Virus record (IMG/VR): IMGVR_UViG_3300037487_000900
Coordinates: 1-32,464 of that record
DNA length: 32,464 nt
Direction: 5' to 3' (one strand)
From: a virus
Shown here: piece by piece, positions 1 through 32,464 of the stretch
Layout: each line of letters starts with the position of its first letter
How positions within the stretch are numbered: the stretch's first letter is position 1
The notes under the pieces: generated by a model
What the model was told of the DNA's origin: nothing
What the model saw: only the letters and a program-made list of their open reading frames with translations
Database searches by the model: none
Program-made: the position numbers and the translations under genes

Positions 1-135
1 AGAAAGCAATGATCTCAGGCTATAATAGTATGGCTCCTAGCGGTTATAACCTTCAGAGTGGCGGATCTAATGGAAGACTCTCTGAAGAAACGAAGCAGAA
101 AATGTCTGATGCTTCGAAGGGAAAACCAAAAGCAC
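1..135. repeat. Terminal direct repeat, left copy
   Basis: Bases 1-135 are repeated at 32331-32464. The only difference is one C: this copy has CC at 126-127 and the right copy has a single C. This copy keeps the reading frame of the GIY-YIG/NUMOD3 gene, so it is probably the correct version. Joining 32330 to 1 restores one continuous gene. The overlap therefore most likely marks a closed circular assembly or a circularly permuted genome rather than a biological long terminal repeat. Confidence 0.9.
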
Positions 136-6067: not shown

Positions 6068-6880
6068 ATGTCAGATACAGATAATGGGACTGCCGATTTA
6101 GGCACTACCTCAACAGAAGGTTCAACAGAGACTGGAGATATATCAGATGACTTTAGTTTAACACTAGACGATCTAATGAATGCTGATTTCAGTGAAGATG
6201 AGATTATGGGTACTACCCATAAAGGACTTCCAGAATATCAAGAGATATTAAAACATTTACCCATTAATGGCCGTAAGCTTATTTCGAATCTACGTTCAAT
6301 GGCTACCACAAAGACACAAGAACTCGCTCAAATGCGTAAGGAAGTTCAATCAGAGCGTGAATCCTTGATTAGAGAGCGTGAAGCACTTCTTGGTGGAAAG
6401 TTCAAGCAGCATATTGATGATCTTGCTGGGAAGCAGACAGAATATGATCCTTGGTCCGAAGAAGGAATCCAGGCAAAGATTCAGACTGAGTCAGCAAAGA
6501 TGTTTCAGCAAATGTTAGCTCCAATGACAGCAGAACTCGAAGCAGCAAAGCGTGGCTCTCAGCTCGAAGCGTTTAAATCGCAGAATCCTGATCTTATTAC
6601 GTATCGGGATGATATCGCCAAGTTACTTATGTCACGTGATGATCTTAGACTTGAAGACGCATATTACATTGTGAAAGGTCAAGCAGCAGCTTCTGCTTCA
6701 GGTATAGCAAGAGACGCGGCTAAGTCACGTGTAGCTTCTGTAAGCAAAACATCTACAGGAAATAATATAGCAAACACAACCGTACCTAAGTTTGGATCTG
6801 CCTGGGAAGCATATTCATATTTTAAAGATAATCCGGAAGCAAGCAAGACTGTAAACAAAATCGGAAATAAGAAGCGCTAA
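6068..6880 (+). CDS. Capsid scaffolding protein
   Basis: A 270-aa protein immediately before the capsid gene. The N-terminus (about 1-55) is very acidic and low in complexity. Residues about 85-175 are charged and heptad-like, consistent with a coiled coil. The C-terminus from about residue 215 is basic, ending NKIGNKKR; a basic C-terminal hook that binds coat protein is typical of phage scaffolds. Composition, length and place all fit a scaffold that shapes the procapsid and then leaves; the assignment is by analogy. Ribosome binding site AAAGGAAAG precedes the ATG at 6068. The 118-base upstream gap holds the hairpin repeat. Confidence 0.82.
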   Translation: MSDTDNGTADLGTTSTEGSTETGDISDDFSLTLDDLMNADFSEDEIMGTTHKGLPEYQEILKHLPINGRKLISNLRSMATTKTQELAQMRKEVQSERESLIREREALLGGKFKQHIDDLAGKQTEYDPWSEEGIQAKIQTESAKMFQQMLAPMTAELEAAKRGSQLEAFKSQNPDLITYRDDIAKLLMSRDDLRLEDAYYIVKGQAAASASGIARDAAKSRVASVSKTSTGNNIANTTVPKFGSAWEAYSYFKDNPEASKTVNKIGNKKR

Positions 6881-6883
6881 GAA

Positions 6884-6908
6884 TAAACGAAACCTACACT
6901 AATAGATA
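6884..6908 (+). promoter_or_regulatory. Late-type promoter motif, copy 2 (before major capsid gene)
   Basis: TAAAC, eight bases, then CACTAATAGATA. Spacing is the same as in the other five copies. It lies 141 bases before the capsid ATG, leaving an AT-rich leader of about 140 bases in which I see no gene. Confidence 0.55.
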
Positions 6909-7049
6909 CAACAACTTTTATAAACCTCCTTGCGAATACTTTATATCCGTCTGTTGATCCTCAGTAGGTAATAATCTAAACTCAAAATAAGAACTAACTA
7001 CAGAGATATTAACAGCATTTTAACAATATAAACATTTTCAGGAGCTTTT

Positions 7050-8063
7050 ATGCCTATTTCCAATGACCTCTTATCCTCGACTCTCTTTTCAATCCGCGAT
7101 GGCGAGGTTGACGAACTTTACAAGAAAGTTCCCTTCCTCGATGAAGCCAAGAAACATGGTGGTATTGAGCGTGAAGACGGTGGAACCAAAATCCAACGTC
7201 CTCTCGCAGTAGCAGAGCACTCAACCATCTCTCAGATGGTGACTGGTTACGAGCCAGTTTCTCTCGCAGTTTCAGATGTACTCAAGCCAGCCATTTATAA
7301 CTGGGGCGATTTCGTTGCTCCGATTGTTATCACCAAGAAAGAGGAAATGGAAAACTCTGGTGAAAAAGCTATCGTGAAGCTTGTCGAAGTGCGTACTCGC
7401 TCAGTCATGAGCCTTATGCGCAGAGAACTTAACAAGCAAATCATCGCAGGGTCTTCCGTTACTCTCACCCAGATCAATACCCTTAACGGTTCGACTGCTG
7501 GTACAGAGAAGTTCCTTGAGCCCCGCGTTCCTGGCGCAACTCAGACCTCAGTGGTTGGTGGACTTGCCAAGAACACTCTAAATGTTCCTGGTTTCTTCAA
7601 TCAGTTCGGTACTGCTGCTGGCGCATTCGGCACAAACGGTCTTGTTCAAATGAACCAGATTTATACCGCTGCTAACGTCATCACCCCTATGGGCGAGATC
7701 CACAGCGTTATTGCTTCTACTGCTGCGTTTGGTAACTACAAGCGCGCTCTATTCGCAAATGAGCGTTATATCGATGAAAAGACTCTTGATGGTGGACGTA
7801 TGGCTCTTGCTTACGCAGGCGCAGTAGTTTCCGCTGATTCTGACATGCCTCTAAACGGCGGCGGTGCTGCTGTCTATAGCATGTACTTCATCAACTTTGA
7901 TGGTATCAAAATGGTAATCCACAAGGATGGCGATTTCGAAGTTGAGCCATTCGAATATGTTTCTGGAACAACTGCTCGCGCAGCTCGTATCTACTTCAAG
8001 GGTCAGCTTATTGCTGATCATCTTGGCGGATGCGGTGTTCTTATCAACGGCGACGTATTTTAA
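7050..8063 (+). CDS. Major capsid protein
   Basis: A 337-aa coat protein directly after the scaffold gene with a strong ribosome binding site (CAGGAG). The gene shows markedly more C-ending, cleaner codon use than its neighbours, as expected for a very highly expressed product. There is no obvious cleavage site or decoration domain. It is expected to adopt the HK97-type fold, as coat proteins of tailed phages do; I infer this from context and did not identify a specific family. Late-type promoter copy 2 lies upstream and a small decoration-like gene follows. Confidence 0.85.
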   Translation: MPISNDLLSSTLFSIRDGEVDELYKKVPFLDEAKKHGGIEREDGGTKIQRPLAVAEHSTISQMVTGYEPVSLAVSDVLKPAIYNWGDFVAPIVITKKEEMENSGEKAIVKLVEVRTRSVMSLMRRELNKQIIAGSSVTLTQINTLNGSTAGTEKFLEPRVPGATQTSVVGGLAKNTLNVPGFFNQFGTAAGAFGTNGLVQMNQIYTAANVITPMGEIHSVIASTAAFGNYKRALFANERYIDEKTLDGGRMALAYAGAVVSADSDMPLNGGGAAVYSMYFINFDGIKMVIHKDGDFEVEPFEYVSGTTARAARIYFKGQLIADHLGGCGVLINGDVF

Positions 8064-14180: not shown

Positions 14181-14202
14181 CATAACGATAATGGAGTTTA
14201 CA

Positions 14203-14700
14203 ATGACTAAAGAAGAGAAAACTGCTTATCAGAAACAGTATCGAATAGATCACATAGAAGAGCTAACTACGAAAAGTAAACAGCGCTACGCAGATCATAA
14301 AGAAGAGGAACGTGCGAAATGTAAACAGTACAGAATAGATCATAAAGAGGAGTTAGCCGCTAAAAAGAAGCAGTACTACATAGATCATAAGGTTGAGGAA
14401 TCAGCTGCTCGTCAGACTGTTAACGGTAGATATACGAAATATAAATCAGGAGCTAAGCAGCGCAATCTAAGCTTTGAACTATCCAAAGACGAGTTTGCTT
14501 CATTCTGGCAAAAGCCTTGTTCGTATTGTGGTGGAGAAATATCTACAATCGGGATTGACCGAATAGACTCAAATAAAGGATATATAAAATCGAACTGTCG
14601 CGCCTGCTGTTCAATATGTAACAAGATCAAACTCGATCATAATATTGAGTTTATAAATGCTCACATGACTAAAATGCTTAAGAATCAAGGATTAATCTAA
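14203..14700 (+). CDS. HNH homing endonuclease with N-terminal repeats (long form)
   Basis: I place the start at 14203 (MTKEEK) rather than the ATG at 14191, because that ATG lies inside a good ribosome binding site (ATGGAG) six bases before 14203. The 165-aa product begins with three to four copies of a short module of the form KQYRIDHKEEL (about residues 10-68), probably helical and DNA-binding. The HNH domain follows: C106-x2-C109, GIDRID, N131, C136-x2-C139 and CN-x2-K. The domain is nearly the same as in the 108-aa gene at 5623, including the DH-to-DR change. The stop overlaps the next start (TAATG). Confidence 0.85.
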   Translation: MTKEEKTAYQKQYRIDHIEELTTKSKQRYADHKEEERAKCKQYRIDHKEELAAKKKQYYIDHKVEESAARQTVNGRYTKYKSGAKQRNLSFELSKDEFASFWQKPCSYCGGEISTIGIDRIDSNKGYIKSNCRACCSICNKIKLDHNIEFINAHMTKMLKNQGLI

Positions 14701-27396: not shown

Positions 27397-27741
27397 TTAA
27401 TCGTACGGCCACCATGCTCGCTTATAGTTATACAACTCTTCCTCTTCCAATACGGATCTGGGAATAGTAGCTCCCGTTTCAAGTAGCACATCGCCCAGTT
27501 CTGATATCGCTATGATCTGATAGTATGCGTGATATGCTCCATAGGGATCATCACATTTCTCACATCCAGCATAAAAGATGTTTGGAATATTACATCCGCA
27601 TCGATATGATGCTTCTATTTTATTAGCTATTAAAACATAGTCACCAGCCAACAATACAAACGGCCCATCATGAGATCCAACATAGGATCCATTGATATGT
27701 CCAGTATGAAAGTCGTCGTTGGCGTTGTTGGTATGGATCAT
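27397..27741 (-). CDS. Small cysteine-containing protein, unknown
   Basis: A 114-aa protein. C48 and C50 (RCGC) with C59 and C62 (GCEKC) could bind one zinc. The frame around this insert (GPFVLLAGDYVLIANK ... YQIIAISELGDVLLETG) looks like strands of a small beta-barrel. In overall layout it recalls the SH3-like paralogues near 346-1395, though similarity is too weak to claim homology. The start overlaps the end of the GIY-YIG gene (ATGA), so it is co-translated. Function unknown. Confidence 0.6.
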   Translation of the reverse strand: MIHTNNANDDFHTGHINGSYVGSHDGPFVLLAGDYVLIANKIEASYRCGCNIPNIFYAGCEKCDDPYGAYHAYYQIIAISELGDVLLETGATIPRSVLEEEELYNYKRAWWPYD

Positions 27742-28151
27742 TTCGATATGCTCTTCACTAATCTGGTATTCAAAATATAATCATGATGCGTGGCCTTTAT
27801 GTACATCTTCTCTGAGATCCTACACTCCGTAGCTCCACAGCGCTCAACTACCTGATAGACAAAACAATCTTCTCCGTGTTGATCATAAGACGCTTGAAGT
27901 TTCTTACATTTATGATCACCAGATTCTAGATTACATTTATGAACAGCCCAACGAGGTTTAAATCCTACAGTTGTAGATCCTACATAGCGCTCATGAGTAA
28001 CTGTGTTGATAATCTCATAAACACCGATATCCCGCTTTGCTTTCTGAGCTTCACGATATGCCTTTTGTTCAGCGCGATGGGATTCACGGTATGCCTTAAT
28101 CTTGTCCGCATGCTTAACTCTATACGCTGCCTGGTCTGCTTTAGTTGTCAT
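27738..28151 (-). CDS. GIY-YIG endonuclease with N-terminal helical repeats
   Basis: A 137-aa protein. I chose ATG 28151 (MTTKADQ), nine bases after a GGAG ribosome binding site (28161-28164); the in-frame TTG at 28166 sits at that site. Residues 8-40 are repeats of AYRxxHxxK type, similar in style to the repeats of the HNH enzyme at 14203. The nuclease follows: GVY 43-45, YVG 56-58, R67, H71 and E114 (ISEKMYI), all the key residues of the GIY-YIG domain. There is no NUMOD3 tail, unlike the 32129 gene. It is likely a free-standing homing enzyme inserted directly behind the polymerase gene, a frequent target for such elements. Confidence 0.85.
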   Translation of the reverse strand: MTTKADQAAYRVKHADKIKAYRESHRAEQKAYREAQKAKRDIGVYEIINTVTHERYVGSTTVGFKPRWAVHKCNLESGDHKCKKLQASYDQHGEDCFVYQVVERCGATECRISEKMYIKATHHDYILNTRLVKSISK

Positions 28152-28152
28152 G

Positions 28153-29397
28153 TTAGTTCGCTCCAATATATTTGTTTGTAAAACTCATCCCAATGTCTAC
28201 GCCATATGTCTCTACAGAAAATAGAGAACATGCTTCTTCTACAGCTACTACATCCTTCTTCGAAACTCTGCCACGTGCTATCATACCGTCATGAATCCTA
28301 CAAGATACAGTATGTCCGGCTTCATGAAGTACTGCTTCTGCTATGTCACCAAACCTTGTCTCAACATCCTGTAGGCAATAAGAGATTCTCTTGGGAAGAT
28401 CCGAGATTGAAGCATATTTTGTAAATGCTGGATGCTGAACTAGCAGTTTGCCAGCAAGACGGCTTTGTGCCGAAAAATCTTTTACAAAATGTTCGTGGAT
28501 ATAATCCCCGTTAGAATCTGTAGGGACGATAGCTCCAGACTCAGCTATCCATGTGGTCATATCACCAGTGCTTGAAGCATTCTTCAGAAGCTTCATACCG
28601 TAGTTCATGGACTGATATAGGTTCTTTCCGGCAGAACGATCAACAGAATAATGATCCATTGTCCTTTTCAGGCTTGCTTCACGATCTTCTACATAAGACT
28701 TAAGAGCGGCAAGATTGACAGTTGGGTCTACTGCGGTGGCGAGAACTACTGTGCTTGTTGGATGGCAGTTCTTCATGTCAAGAACAGACTGATTGGATAT
28801 AATCGCATCTCTTATGTAGGAGGGAAGGTACATTTGAGATGGGCCCTTAGCATAATATCTTCCATCAAGATTAGATGATGTTGGAGCCATTCTTACATAT
28901 GCGATTCCGTGTTCGTCAACAGAAGCGATATGAGTCTTTAATAAGGTCATGTGTTCCTGGCTTACAAAGTTGTAAGGATTGGCGAGGAGAGCTTCTGCTT
29001 TTACAAGATCTGTGTATTCGATCTTGATACATCCGTTTGTAGGTTCTGGACGCTTAACGTAGCGGCGTAGGATGTTGGGGTCTTCTTTCAACCAAAGATC
29101 CAAGGTTTCTTGGAGTGTTGGGAGCGGCTTCACAGCTCTTGTAAAGCCTTTCTGGTCCTTAGCGTGTGCCCATTTGGCCGGGGTTACTTCATTAGAGGAA
29201 AAGTGTCTGTATTTTGGGTCGACAACTTCCAGGAAGTAAGAATACGCTTCTTTGTAATCTTCACCAAAGACAGCTTGCCATTCTTTGGTTGATGTAGTGT
29301 ACGCACCTTTGACTATTTTATGCTCATAACGCCCAGGACGTAGCTTCTGGGCCTCTGCTGCGAGGAGTCTTGCGCGTGGAGAAGAGGGAGTGATCAT
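28153..29397 (-). CDS. Compact family-A-like polymerase (TV-Pol / T7-RNAP superfamily)
   Basis: A 414-aa protein holding the three polymerase motifs of the DNA polymerase I/T7 RNA polymerase superfamily. Motif A is LDMKNCHPT with D207. Motif B is DRSAGKNLYQSMNYG with R254, K258, Y266 and G267. Motif C is RIHDG with H369 and D370. The R-x3-K-x7-YG spacing and the ~51-residue A-to-B distance match E. coli Pol I (R754, K758, Y766; D705). The GRYY-KG...LPSYIRD block (179-196) precedes motif A. No 3'-5' or 5' exonuclease is present; the ~170 N-terminal residues show no known domain. The residue five after the motif A Asp (steric gate, Glu in DNA polymerases) is H212. It may replicate the genome; transcription is an alternative. 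Ribosome binding site AAAAGGA. Confidence 0.8.
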   Translation of the reverse strand: MITPSSPRARLLAAEAQKLRPGRYEHKIVKGAYTTSTKEWQAVFGEDYKEAYSYFLEVVDPKYRHFSSNEVTPAKWAHAKDQKGFTRAVKPLPTLQETLDLWLKEDPNILRRYVKRPEPTNGCIKIEYTDLVKAEALLANPYNFVSQEHMTLLKTHIASVDEHGIAYVRMAPTSSNLDGRYYAKGPSQMYLPSYIRDAIISNQSVLDMKNCHPTSTVVLATAVDPTVNLAALKSYVEDREASLKRTMDHYSVDRSAGKNLYQSMNYGMKLLKNASSTGDMTTWIAESGAIVPTDSNGDYIHEHFVKDFSAQSRLAGKLLVQHPAFTKYASISDLPKRISYCLQDVETRFGDIAEAVLHEAGHTVSCRIHDGMIARGRVSKKDVVAVEEACSLFSVETYGVDIGMSFTNKYIGAN

Positions 29398-29416
29398 GTT
29401 ATGTTCCTTTTAATAC

Positions 29417-29434
29417 TACGAGGGCCACCTCGTA
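29417..29434 (-). promoter_or_regulatory. RBS-proximal hairpin of the polymerase gene
   Basis: On the - strand TACGAGG-TGGC-CCTCGTA forms a perfect 7-bp stem with a 4-base loop. It ends about five bases before the AAAAGGA ribosome binding site of the polymerase gene. It could be a translational operator, as the hairpin before T4 DNA polymerase gene 43 is; or a DNA operator. Function inferred. Confidence 0.55.
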
Positions 29435-29518
29435 TACCTAACGCAGAAATAATACCATATCGGGCTGGTTAGGCAAGTTTTATTTCATGCCGCGCAAAAG
29501 AAATATTTAGAAAAGGTA

Positions 29519-29593
29519 AATCCCCGCTTAGCAGGTTCCTATTGTGGCTCTCTCCCGGAATATTTAGGAGGCGGTTGCTGCTAAGCGGGGATT
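29519..29593 (-). ncRNA. Long 16-bp hairpin in polymerase leader, candidate small RNA or attenuator
   Basis: AATCCCCGCTTAGCAG (29519-29534) is exactly complementary to 29578-29593, giving a perfect 16-bp stem with a 43-base loop. The loop can form a further small stem (CTCC with GGAG). On the - strand a TATAAT box at 29607-29602 predicts a transcript start within one or two bases of the stem. The stem is followed by T-rich sequence (TTTACCTTTTCTAAATATT). It could therefore be a ~75-base RNA, a 5' stability hairpin or an attenuator for the polymerase gene. Confidence 0.5.
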
Positions 29594-29800: not shown

Positions 29801-30160
29801 TTACAGCTCCTCCAGCTTGACCTCGGTGCGCGTAGAGGAAGCTCGCAGGATCTTTGTAATAGTTAAACGAACCACCTGCGAATCATCTTTCCAGACACCA
29901 CCATTTAAAGAGTCCAATAAAATCTTGGCAGTATTGTCTATGTCAAACCGCCGTGCCGAATCTACGTAGAGGATAATCTCCACGGCCCATGGCCTTACCG
30001 AAGGCCCCGTAAATGGCACAGGAAGGGCTGTGCTAGCGATCACCTGTATAGCCTGCTCTTGCGCTCGGATCTTCGGATCCTTGAACATACGGCCCTTCCC
30101 AATGCGATTTGAGTTGGGCTTCGAAAGTAGTTTGAAAGGTAGTGTGAACTGGATAATCAT
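29801..30160 (-). CDS. rusA: RusA-family Holliday junction resolvase
   Basis: A 119-aa protein, the size of E. coli RusA (120 aa). The catalytic block RRFDIDNTAKILLDSLNG has D73, D75 and K79, in the same spacing as RusA D70, D72 and K76. It is followed by WKDDSQV with D92/D93, matching RusA D91. The N-terminus SKPNSNR corresponds to the family's conserved Pro-Asn-Arg segment. It should cut four-way junctions as a dimer, resolving branched DNA before packaging. The ribosome binding site TTAGGAG precedes the ATG at 30160. It is the first gene of the leftward block. Confidence 0.92.
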   Translation of the reverse strand: MIIQFTLPFKLLSKPNSNRIGKGRMFKDPKIRAQEQAIQVIASTALPVPFTGPSVRPWAVEIILYVDSARRFDIDNTAKILLDSLNGGVWKDDSQVVRLTITKILRASSTRTEVKLEEL

Positions 30161-30944: not shown

Positions 30945-31219
30945 AGATCCATCCCGCATTTGACTATAGAAAAGGCAACACACTAAATCTTGTTGAAACA
31001 ACAATGATCTATCAGTATCAGTTTGAGCGGTTAGAGAACGTAAAGGCAGCTCTATTGATGGTGAGGATAAAGCTACTGGCAGAAACAAGATTACCACAGA
31101 AATCAGATCTACTGAAACAACAAACAAGTCTAAAAGAAGAATCCATCATCCTCGAACGCAGTCTTAAACTATCATTACAATGCTGGGAAATCCTAGCGAA
31201 AAACAAGGAGTATAACTAA
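30941..31219 (+). CDS. Small coiled-coil protein, unknown
   Basis: A 92-aa protein starting at ATG 30941, which overlaps the previous stop. Residues about 28-90 form a long helix with heptad-like hydrophobics (YQFERLENVKAALLMVRIKL ... LKEESIILERSLKLSLQCWE). There is no catalytic or DNA-binding motif. Its stop overlaps the sigma-like gene start (TAATG), so the two products may be made together in fixed ratio and could interact. Confidence 0.62.
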   Translation: MKIHPAFDYRKGNTLNLVETTMIYQYQFERLENVKAALLMVRIKLLAETRLPQKSDLLKQQTSLKEESIILERSLKLSLQCWEILAKNKEYN

Positions 31220-31539
31220 TGTCATCAAACCAAAACTGGCGATATGTATCAGCAGAGAAAGCAAGACTTTCTAAGATTATGGATTACGATCAGGTAAGTC
31301 CTGAGGATAGCTGGATAGCAGCTATTGATGGAGAACAAGAAGAGAAGGAATACGGATTTGACGCACATGAGATTATCGATACAAACTTAACGCTACGTGA
31401 AGCTAATATAGTGAAGGAAGTACTTTTCAATAAAAGCACATTTTCTGCTACTGCTCTTAAGTTTGGTCTCAAAAAGGATAATACATATAGAATCTATAGA
31501 CGAGCTCTGCTTAAACTCAAAGGATGTATTGAGATATAA
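31219..31539 (+). CDS. Sigma-70 region 4-like DNA-binding protein
   Basis: A 106-aa protein with ribosome binding site AAGGAG. Residues about 57-102 (LTLREANIVKEVLF, then STFSATALKFGLKK, then IYRRALLKLKG) fit the helix-turn-helix of sigma region 4 / LuxR-like type: an LT-RE opening, a short turn, A--FGL, and a final helix with R-ALLKLK. The N-terminal half is acidic and lacks regions 2 and 3 of sigma factors. It could direct host RNA polymerase to phage promoters or act as a middle/late activator. A late-type promoter motif lies right at its end. Specific function unproven. Confidence 0.62.
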   Translation: MSSNQNWRYVSAEKARLSKIMDYDQVSPEDSWIAAIDGEQEEKEYGFDAHEIIDTNLTLREANIVKEVLFNKSTFSATALKFGLKKDNTYRIYRRALLKLKGCIEI

Positions 31540-31562
31540 ACAGAGTCTACACTAATATAGGG
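31537..31562 (+). promoter_or_regulatory. Late-type promoter motif, copy 6 (before groES)
   Basis: TAAAC, eight bases, then CACTAATATAGGG. It starts at the stop of the sigma-like gene and lies 35 bases before the GroES ATG. It is closest to copy 2 in the eight-base spacer (both end CTA). Confidence 0.55.
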
Positions 31563-31597
31563 TGCGAAAGGCATCCATTAGTTTTAAAAGGAACACA

Positions 31598-31903
31598 ATG
31601 ACAATAGCAGAACCAGCATTCAATAATATTCTAGTTAAGCGATACGAGAAACCAACAATGAGTAAGTCCGGTCTCTATATGCCAGAGACAACCAAGACTG
31701 ATGTACCCGAAGGTATCATAGTCTCTGTAGGAAAAGGTCTAGTTCAACCTGATGGTTTTCTAACACCAATGAGCGCAAAGGTTGGAGATCATGTCATCTA
31801 TTCTAAGCACGCAGGAACTATTATAAGAATAGATGGTGAAGAACTTATTCTTATTTTGGAAACAGATATACTCTGTACTCTTAAGGAACACAATGCCAGG
31901 TAG
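31598..31903 (+). CDS. groES: GroES-like co-chaperonin
   Basis: A 101-aa Cpn10 homologue. The ATG at 31598 with AAAAGGA is preferred to the in-frame ATG at 31562, which overlaps the promoter motif. It has the opening strand NNILVKRYEKP, a mobile-loop region (about 15-35, SKSGLYMPE) and the G-V-VG-G strand (GIIVSVGKG). VKVGD-like KVGDHVIYSKHAGT and the closing DGEELILILETDIL complete the family pattern. It would cap host GroEL to fold phage proteins, probably coat protein, as T4 gp31 does. No GroEL gene is present in the window. The 3' end overlaps the next gene. Confidence 0.92.
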   Translation: MTIAEPAFNNILVKRYEKPTMSKSGLYMPETTKTDVPEGIIVSVGKGLVQPDGFLTPMSAKVGDHVIYSKHAGTIIRIDGEELILILETDILCTLKEHNAR

Positions 31904-32132: not shown

Positions 32133-32464
32133 CTGGAATATATCTTATTACGAACACGATAAACGGAAAGTGTTATGTAGGTCAGAGCATAAATATTGAG
32201 AAGAGATGGAAAGAACATAAGACATGTAAAGAGAAGTTTGCTATTCATAATGCCTTTAGGAAATATGGTCTAGAAAGTTTTACTTTTGAAGTCCTTCTCG
32301 AATGTCCCGAAGAGAGTTTGGGTTTCCTTGAGAAAGCAATGATCTCAGGCTATAATAGTATGGCTCCTAGCGGTTATAACCTTCAGAGTGGCGGATCTAA
32401 TGGAAGACTCTCTGAAGAAACGAAGCAGAAAATGTCTGATGCTTCGAAGGGAAAACAAAAGCAC
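32129..32464 (+). CDS. GIY-YIG homing endonuclease, N-terminal part, continues at 1
   Basis: This is the start of the 184-aa gene that ends at 353. The nuclease domain has GIY (3-5), YVG (16-18), R26, H30 and the catalytic E68 (GFLEKAMI), all expected residues. Residues 70-90 match the typical tail of this domain. NUMOD3 repeats begin near residue 94. In this right-hand copy the single missing C near 32456 would shift the frame for the last few codons; the left copy is intact, so I regard it as an assembly artefact. The start overlaps the previous stop (ATGA). Confidence 0.9.
   Translation, partial: MTGIYLITNTINGKCYVGQSINIEKRWKEHKTCKEKFAIHNAFRKYGLESFTFEVLLECPEESLGFLEKAMISGYNSMAPSGYNLQSGGSNGRLSEETKQKMSDASKGKQKH
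32331..32464. repeat. Terminal direct repeat, right copy
   Basis: 134 bases identical to 1-135 except for one missing C at about 32456. See the left copy for interpretation. Confidence 0.9.

What the first reader, a model, noticed from the sequence alone, without database searches (positions are those of the whole stretch)
28153..29397. Stand-alone compact family-A-like polymerase, possibly the sole phage replicase or an unusual RNA polymerase
Seen: motif A with D207, motif B with R254, K258 and Y266, and motif C with H369 and D370, all within 414 aa and with no exonuclease domain. The R/K/Y spacing equals that of E. coli Pol I and the 51-residue motif A to B distance fits Pol I better than T7 RNA polymerase (94). 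Known: the TV-Pol (transposon-virophage) lineage of this superfamily has such minimal polymerases. Inference: this is a phage branch of that kind. H212 at the steric-gate position, where DNA polymerases have Glu, leaves the nucleotide choice open. HDG replaces HDE in motif C.
Basis: partly seen in the sequence, partly recalled or inferred. Interest (0 to 1): 0.8.

Follow-up and report, generated by a model that had tools for sequence, protein, structure and literature searches.

The report
Minimal phage DNA polymerase without exonuclease
A small, complete, uncultivated tailed-phage genome carries a stripped-down relative of DNA polymerase I (palm and fingers, no proofreading domain) as its only recognisable replication enzyme, and several related phages carry an even smaller, barely recognisable polymerase at the same place in the genome.

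Summary
ORF 29397->28153 (414 aa) holds, in order and at the right spacing, the hairpin Arg (R180), motif A (D207), motif B (R254xxxK258x7Y266G267) and motif C (H369 D370) of family A polymerases. It has no homologue in Pfam, PHROGs, PDB sequences, phage or plasmid records, or 2.9 million viral contigs. Motif profiles (2 of 5000 shuffles score as high), profile-profile comparison and a low-confidence AlphaFold model, whose palm matches almost only family A DNA polymerases, place it in that superfamily. Motif A 'LDMKNCHPT' (D-x4-H-P) is the usual motif A of TV-Pols and of some divPolA2 proteins, so H212 is the ordinary residue there, not a sign of odd substrate choice. HDG in motif C also occurs in relatives. 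The genome is probably complete (about 32.3 kb circle; 126-bp end repeat) and shows no other polymerase, helicase or primase. Five contigs of related phages (two complete) carry, upstream of terminase, a polymerase-like ORF with the same motif order. At least three other relatives lack one, so it is not essential to the group. Best reading: a TV-Pol-like, exonuclease-free DNA polymerase or prim-pol that starts or boosts phage DNA synthesis. Priming is untested.

The parts
28153..29397 (-). minimal family-A-like polymerase gene, 414 aa
28810..28866 (-). residues 178-196, hairpin block DGRYYAKGPSQMYLPSYIR with conserved Arg R180 (template-strand Arg of family A/TV-Pol)
   Evidence: placed here independently by hhalign, hmmsearch and the block profile
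28756..28782 (-). residues 206-214, motif A LDMKNCHPT: catalytic D207, H212 at the steric-gate position (D+5), P213
28597..28638 (-). residues 254-267, motif B RSAGKNLYQSMNYG (R254, K258, Y266, G267)
28276..28302 (-). residues 366-374, motif C CRIHDGMIA with H369 and catalytic D370 at the turn of a predicted beta hairpin
29398..29480 (-). likely promoter (TTGCCT-16-TATTAT, 29476-29449) and ribosome-binding site of the polymerase gene
   Evidence: consensus matches only
27738..28166 (-). GIY-YIG homing endonuclease directly after, and overlapping the end of, the polymerase gene
29801..30160 (-). RusA-like Holliday junction resolvase upstream of the polymerase on the same strand; only other DNA-metabolism enzyme recognised apart from nucleases and terminase
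1..126 (.). left copy of the 126-bp end repeat; joining the ends closes one GIY-YIG/NUMOD3 gene, so the contig looks circularly complete (about 32,330 bp)
32331..32456 (.). right copy of the 126-bp end repeat (8 further bases at the very end differ)

Best explanation
The gene encodes a catalytically competent minimal polymerase of the family A / TV-Pol kind: palm and fingers with two metal-binding aspartates (D207, D370), a template-contacting hairpin Arg (R180) and a fingers helix (R254, K258, Y266) that would bind the incoming nucleotide, with no recognisable 3'-5' or 5'-3' exonuclease domain. It most likely synthesises DNA from dNTPs on the phage template. In a small phage with no other replication gene, its likeliest job is to make or extend the first DNA strand at the phage origin (prim-pol-like, as CcPol does in SCC elements with its partner MP), with the host supplying helicase, clamp and bulk polymerase. 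Shown here: the ORF, the motif set and its statistical support, a palm-like fold prediction, the genome context, and a polymerase-like ORF at this map position in several relatives. Inferred: DNA rather than RNA synthesis, catalytic activity, and the initiation role. Not shown: priming.
For: Ordered motif blocks match a profile built from other proteins: 2 of 5000 shuffles reach the score; rank 1 of 488 real ORFs, with two syntenic polymerases of related phages next. hhalign against the TV-Pol/divPolA2 profile: P 0.0016, with R180, D207 and H212-P213 in register; 0 of 400 shuffles reach the score. hmmsearch with the syntenic family puts P0001 directly after the true members, aligned at HDG, though at E about 1. 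AlphaFold with 5 sequences: mean pLDDT 40.5, palm parts 50-75, order beta(203-209)-alpha-fingers-alpha-beta hairpin(363-375, HD at the turn)-alpha-beta. Foldseek hits are almost all family A DNA polymerases (apPol 1.5e-3, Pol1, T7 DNAP, Taq, Bst). VIA Z 8-9 to Bst Pol I and E. coli Pol II over residues 179-413. Motif A with HP and motif C HDS/HDG occur in bacterial TV-Pols and divPolA2. Five contigs of phages sharing structural genes carry a polymerase-like ORF upstream of terminase, in four of them shown to lie between the lysis-side genes and terminase; two of these are complete (end repeats 62 and 127 bp). CcPol of this kind primes with dNTPs when paired with MP (PMC7581432, PMC10061031).
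Against: No database method gives a significant whole-protein hit. The hmmsearch score against the larger TV-Pol profile is not above noise (rank 27). The structural model is low confidence, so its matches are supportive, not decisive, and no Foldseek E-value is below 1e-3. At least three relatives lack such an ORF (G004, G039, G014; also L073), so the enzyme is not essential for this type of phage. No D5-type helicase, which often accompanies TV-Pols, was found. No ssDNA-binding partner like MP was identified. RNA-versus-DNA preference cannot be read from the sequence.
Confidence: 0.66

Rival explanations
1. It is a single-subunit RNA polymerase of the phage: same palm and fingers, used to transcribe late genes from phage promoters.
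For: T7-type RNA polymerases share the superfamily and have HDS in motif C, close to HDG (general knowledge); divPolA2 was proposed as a possible RNA polymerase (PMC11348598). One mitochondrial RNA polymerase complex appears among the VIA rows.
Against: No promoter-recognition or N-terminal domain like T7 or mitochondrial RNAP was recognised; the D207-K258 spacing (51) is near Pol I (53), not T7 RNAP (94) (those two numbers from general knowledge); motif A D-x4-H-P is that of TV-Pols; the best structural matches are DNA polymerases. The phage carries a weak sigma-region-4-like protein (31219-31539) that could serve regulation instead.
Confidence: 0.12
2. It is an accessory polymerase (repair, recombination-linked synthesis or lesion bypass with RusA) and not part of genome replication.
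For: RusA lies upstream on the same strand; relatives with the same structural genes lack the ORF; divPolA2 phages have a separate replicative PolB (PMC11348598).
Against: No other polymerase gene was seen in this apparently complete genome; in relatives the ORF stands alone or with varied neighbours, not with a conserved repair set.
Confidence: 0.17
3. It is a decayed or catalytically dead polymerase remnant.
For: Orphan sequence and weak coding score relative to structural-type genes.
Against: 414 codons open, all catalytic and template-binding residues kept, own ribosome-binding site and promoter-like site; the syntenic family keeps invariant D, K and HD residues.
Confidence: 0.05

Closest known systems
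TV-Pol family (Iyer, Abhiman and Aravind 2008, PMC2579912)
   Same: 400-600 aa, minimal palm/fingers, conserved hairpin Arg, two Asp, RxxxK in fingers, no nuclease domain, mobile elements and viruses; motif A D-x4-H-P as in bacterial members recovered here
   Different: Sequence too divergent for BLAST or HMMER; K+8 is Tyr followed by Gly as in Pol I, where the TV-Pols recovered here mostly have Asn; HDG where most have HDS; no D5 helicase, resolvase or integrase next to it
divPolA2 (DNA polymerase swapping in Caudoviricetes, PMC11348598; PHROG 4756)
   Same: 430-aa-class phage protein, palm without exonuclease, hairpin RxY..Q..LP..R, motif A DxKxxE/HP, motif C HDS/FDE
   Different: Found mostly in 80-140 kb phages, described with a separate regular polymerase; no significant pairwise similarity to P0001; profile P 0.004
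CcPol of SCC elements, with MP (PolA-SSB primases; PMC7581432, PMC10061031)
   Same: Family A catalytic core reduced to a small enzyme of a mobile element; catalytic D169 and D324 are 155 apart (here D207 and D370 are 163 apart)
   Different: CcPol keeps the Pol I ribonucleotide-discrimination residues according to its authors and has the partner MP and helicase Cch2; neither was found here
Syntenic 335-361 aa ORFs of related phages (L038:159-1166 -, L035:64-1110 -, L097:7528-8550 -, L066:1510-2595 +, partial L216)
   Same: Upstream of terminase in phages with the same structural genes; R-x-Y..Q hairpin, D-x3-C-F motif A, K..R..L motif B, HDG motif C
   Different: 12-19% identity to P0001 in the alignment, shorter; Phe not His at D+5; not found in the papers searched

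Membership tests
Superfamily A polymerases (Pol I / T7-like) | motif A Asp, motif B RxxxK...YG, motif C HD, in order with usual spacing | tested here: met
Superfamily A polymerases (Pol I / T7-like) | palm (RRM-like) fold | tested here: inconclusive
   low-confidence model (pLDDT 40.5), but palm-type order of secondary structure and nearly all top Foldseek rows are family A
Superfamily A polymerases (Pol I / T7-like) | detectable sequence homology to family A models | tested here: not met
   no Pfam, PHROGs or PDB phmmer hit
TV-Pol | hairpin with conserved Arg before motif A | tested here: met
   R180 placed by independent alignments
TV-Pol | motif A D-x4-H-P (pattern of members recovered here) and motif C HDS-type | tested here: met
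   LDMKNCHPT; CRIHDGMIA, with G instead of S as in two recovered sequences
TV-Pol | no nuclease domain, 400-600 aa | tested here: met
   414 aa; no family hit; the N-terminal 175 residues have no assigned fold
TV-Pol | profile-level homology to TV-Pols | tested here: inconclusive
   hhalign P 0.0016 and 0 of 400 shuffles reach it, but HMMER not significant
TV-Pol | D5-like helicase fused or adjacent (frequent, not obligatory) | tested here: not met
   no Walker A ORF by pattern and no helicase family hit in the proteins scanned
PolA-SSB primase (CcPol-MP) | adjacent OB-fold ssDNA-binding partner | tested here: inconclusive
   the 114-aa neighbour 27397-27741 has no family hit; its fold was not predicted
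PolA-SSB primase (CcPol-MP) | de novo primer synthesis | not testable with these tools
   needs biochemistry

The most novel reading that the evidence does not exclude
In a group of roughly 30-kb tailed phages, an exonuclease-free minimal family A polymerase of about 340-414 aa is the only phage-coded replication protein and both primes and extends phage DNA: a one-gene replication system that has diverged beyond sequence recognition, or been swapped, at a fixed genomic site.
Probability: 0.2. Interest if true: 0.75.

Novelty: new variant of a known kind. Interest (0 to 1): 0.5.

Why it matters
It extends minimal TV-Pol-like enzymes to small tailed phages that otherwise seem to lack replication genes, and shows a polymerase gene that current profile libraries miss completely, so such phages would be annotated as having no replicase. 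It also gives natural minimal polymerases for asking what the superfamily A core needs in order to prime DNA.

Tried and rejected
Exact 8-mer scans with P0001 in viral contigs, and tblastn in phages and plasmids: nothing. Degenerate motif A pattern in viral contigs (4 hits) and in GTDB genome contigs (28 hits), motif B pattern (23 hits), CFPNIF pattern (12 hits, two of them the known relatives): otherwise all chance. The G014 144-aa BLAST hit is a chance match of charged sequence. Single-sequence AlphaFold failed (pLDDT 36). A1 could not be used as a degenerate query. A motif regex over Microcystis phage Ma-LMM01 positions 1-50,000, looking for its TV-Pol, found none there. A set of randomly altered copies of the protein was generated as pattern carriers and then dropped without use. 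Other families among the VIA rows (Pol alpha, Pol II, herpesvirus helicase-primase, IS608 transposase, ribosomal S6) probably reflect the common palm/RRM arrangement.

Full report
What is there. The ORF is on the minus strand, complement(28153..29397), 414 aa. Added here is the hairpin Arg R180, in a block that aligners place on the family A/TV-Pol hairpin without guidance. The gene has its own ribosome-binding site and a promoter-like site. It is followed, with a short overlap, by a GIY-YIG endonuclease gene; RusA lies upstream on the same strand.

Genome. The window is a whole IMG/VR record. Its first 126 bases recur at the end, and joining the ends restores one intact GIY-YIG/NUMOD3 gene, so I read it as a circularly complete genome of about 32,330 bp; the last 8 bases differ, which is a small caveat. 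Recognised genes: terminase, portal, major head protein, endolysin, GroES, HNH and GIY-YIG endonucleases, RusA, and a weak sigma-region-4 match. No Walker A ORF was seen by pattern, and no other polymerase, helicase or primase by family searches of the proteins scanned.

Is it a polymerase? Direct searches find nothing. The route that worked was the literature lead divPolA2 (PMC11348598): AUR84708 is 430 aa with the same block order. Its profile recovers TV-Pol-like proteins in bacterial genomes, 24 of 385 genomes of one class and 11 of 395 of one phylum, the weakest of these being marginal. Their motif A is typically LDxxxxHPxxL and motif C HDS. P0001 against this combined set: hhalign P 0.0016, 0 of 400 shuffles as good; in the same run three proteins of related phages scored higher, all at the hairpin/motif A region. 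A six-block test gave 40.6 for P0001 versus shuffles 22.0 +/- 4.0 (2 of 5000), rank 1 of 488 real ORFs, followed by two of those same phage proteins. The allowed gaps were set by hand around the observed ranges.

Relatives. Those proteins (335-361 aa) lie in contigs G018, G017, G026 and G036, whose structural genes are collinear with the window, between the lysis-side genes and terminase; a partial fifth contig has one upstream of terminase. G017 and G018 have exact end repeats of 127 and 62 bp. The family keeps R-x-Y, D-I-x-x-C-F, K-x2-R-x2-L and HDG invariant. MAFFT aligns D207, C211, E346 and HDG of P0001 with them unprompted, and hmmsearch ranks P0001 next after the members, though at E about 1. 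Relatives G004, G039 and G014 have no such ORF there; G004 and G039 have a 174-202 aa protein on the opposite strand instead. So a polymerase is common but not universal at this site. Whether P0001 and the shorter ORFs are diverged orthologues or independent acquisitions is open.

Fold. With five sequences AlphaFold gives mean pLDDT 40.5 but 50-75 in the palm, with motif A on a strand and HD at the turn of a hairpin. Foldseek returns almost only family A DNA polymerases, best E 1.5e-3; VIA Z is 8-9 against Bst Pol I and E. coli Pol II over residues 179-413, a level the tool notes can reflect a common arrangement. I treat this as consistent support, not proof. The N-terminal 175 residues remain unassigned; an exonuclease was not recognised.

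Function. H212 matches the TV-Pol His, so it says nothing unusual about substrate. CcPol, another reduced family A enzyme of mobile elements, extends primers alone and primes with dNTPs when bound to MP (PMC7581432, PMC10061031). By analogy, and because no other replication enzyme is seen, I favour DNA synthesis for the phage, probably at initiation, with the host replisome doing the rest. Priming, partner and nucleotide preference are inferred or unknown. Because some relatives lack the ORF, an accessory role stays a serious rival.

Noticed in passing
window 29519-29593 (-): Perfect 16-nt inverted repeat enclosing 43 nt, just upstream of the polymerase gene, preceded by a TATAAT-like site and followed by a T-rich run; folds at -35.6 kcal/mol, z -5.0; not in Rfam and not in other loci held. 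Possible small RNA, terminator or origin hairpin.
   Followed up: partly
window ends 1-126 and 32331-32456: Terminal repeat inside a GIY-YIG/NUMOD3 homing endonuclease gene; the genome looks circularly complete.
   Followed up: yes
window 27738-28166 (-), 14191-14700 (+), junction gene: Three homing-type endonucleases in a 32-kb genome; in G026 a NUMOD-like gene also follows the polymerase (6864-7538).
   Followed up: no
L089:2108-2716 (+), L099:3082-3606 (+): 174-202 aa protein with an HTH/sigma-like C-terminus (by eye) at the polymerase position in relatives without the polymerase; ORFs of similar size (173-198 aa, not compared) lie next to the polymerase in G017, G018 and G036. No Pfam hit.
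   Followed up: partly
window 31562-31903 (+): Phage-coded GroES-like co-chaperonin (phrog_3188, E 1e-18) in a 32-kb phage.
   Followed up: no
PHROG 4756: Listed as unknown function, but its members include divPolA2 and share motifs with bacterial TV-Pols.
   Followed up: partly
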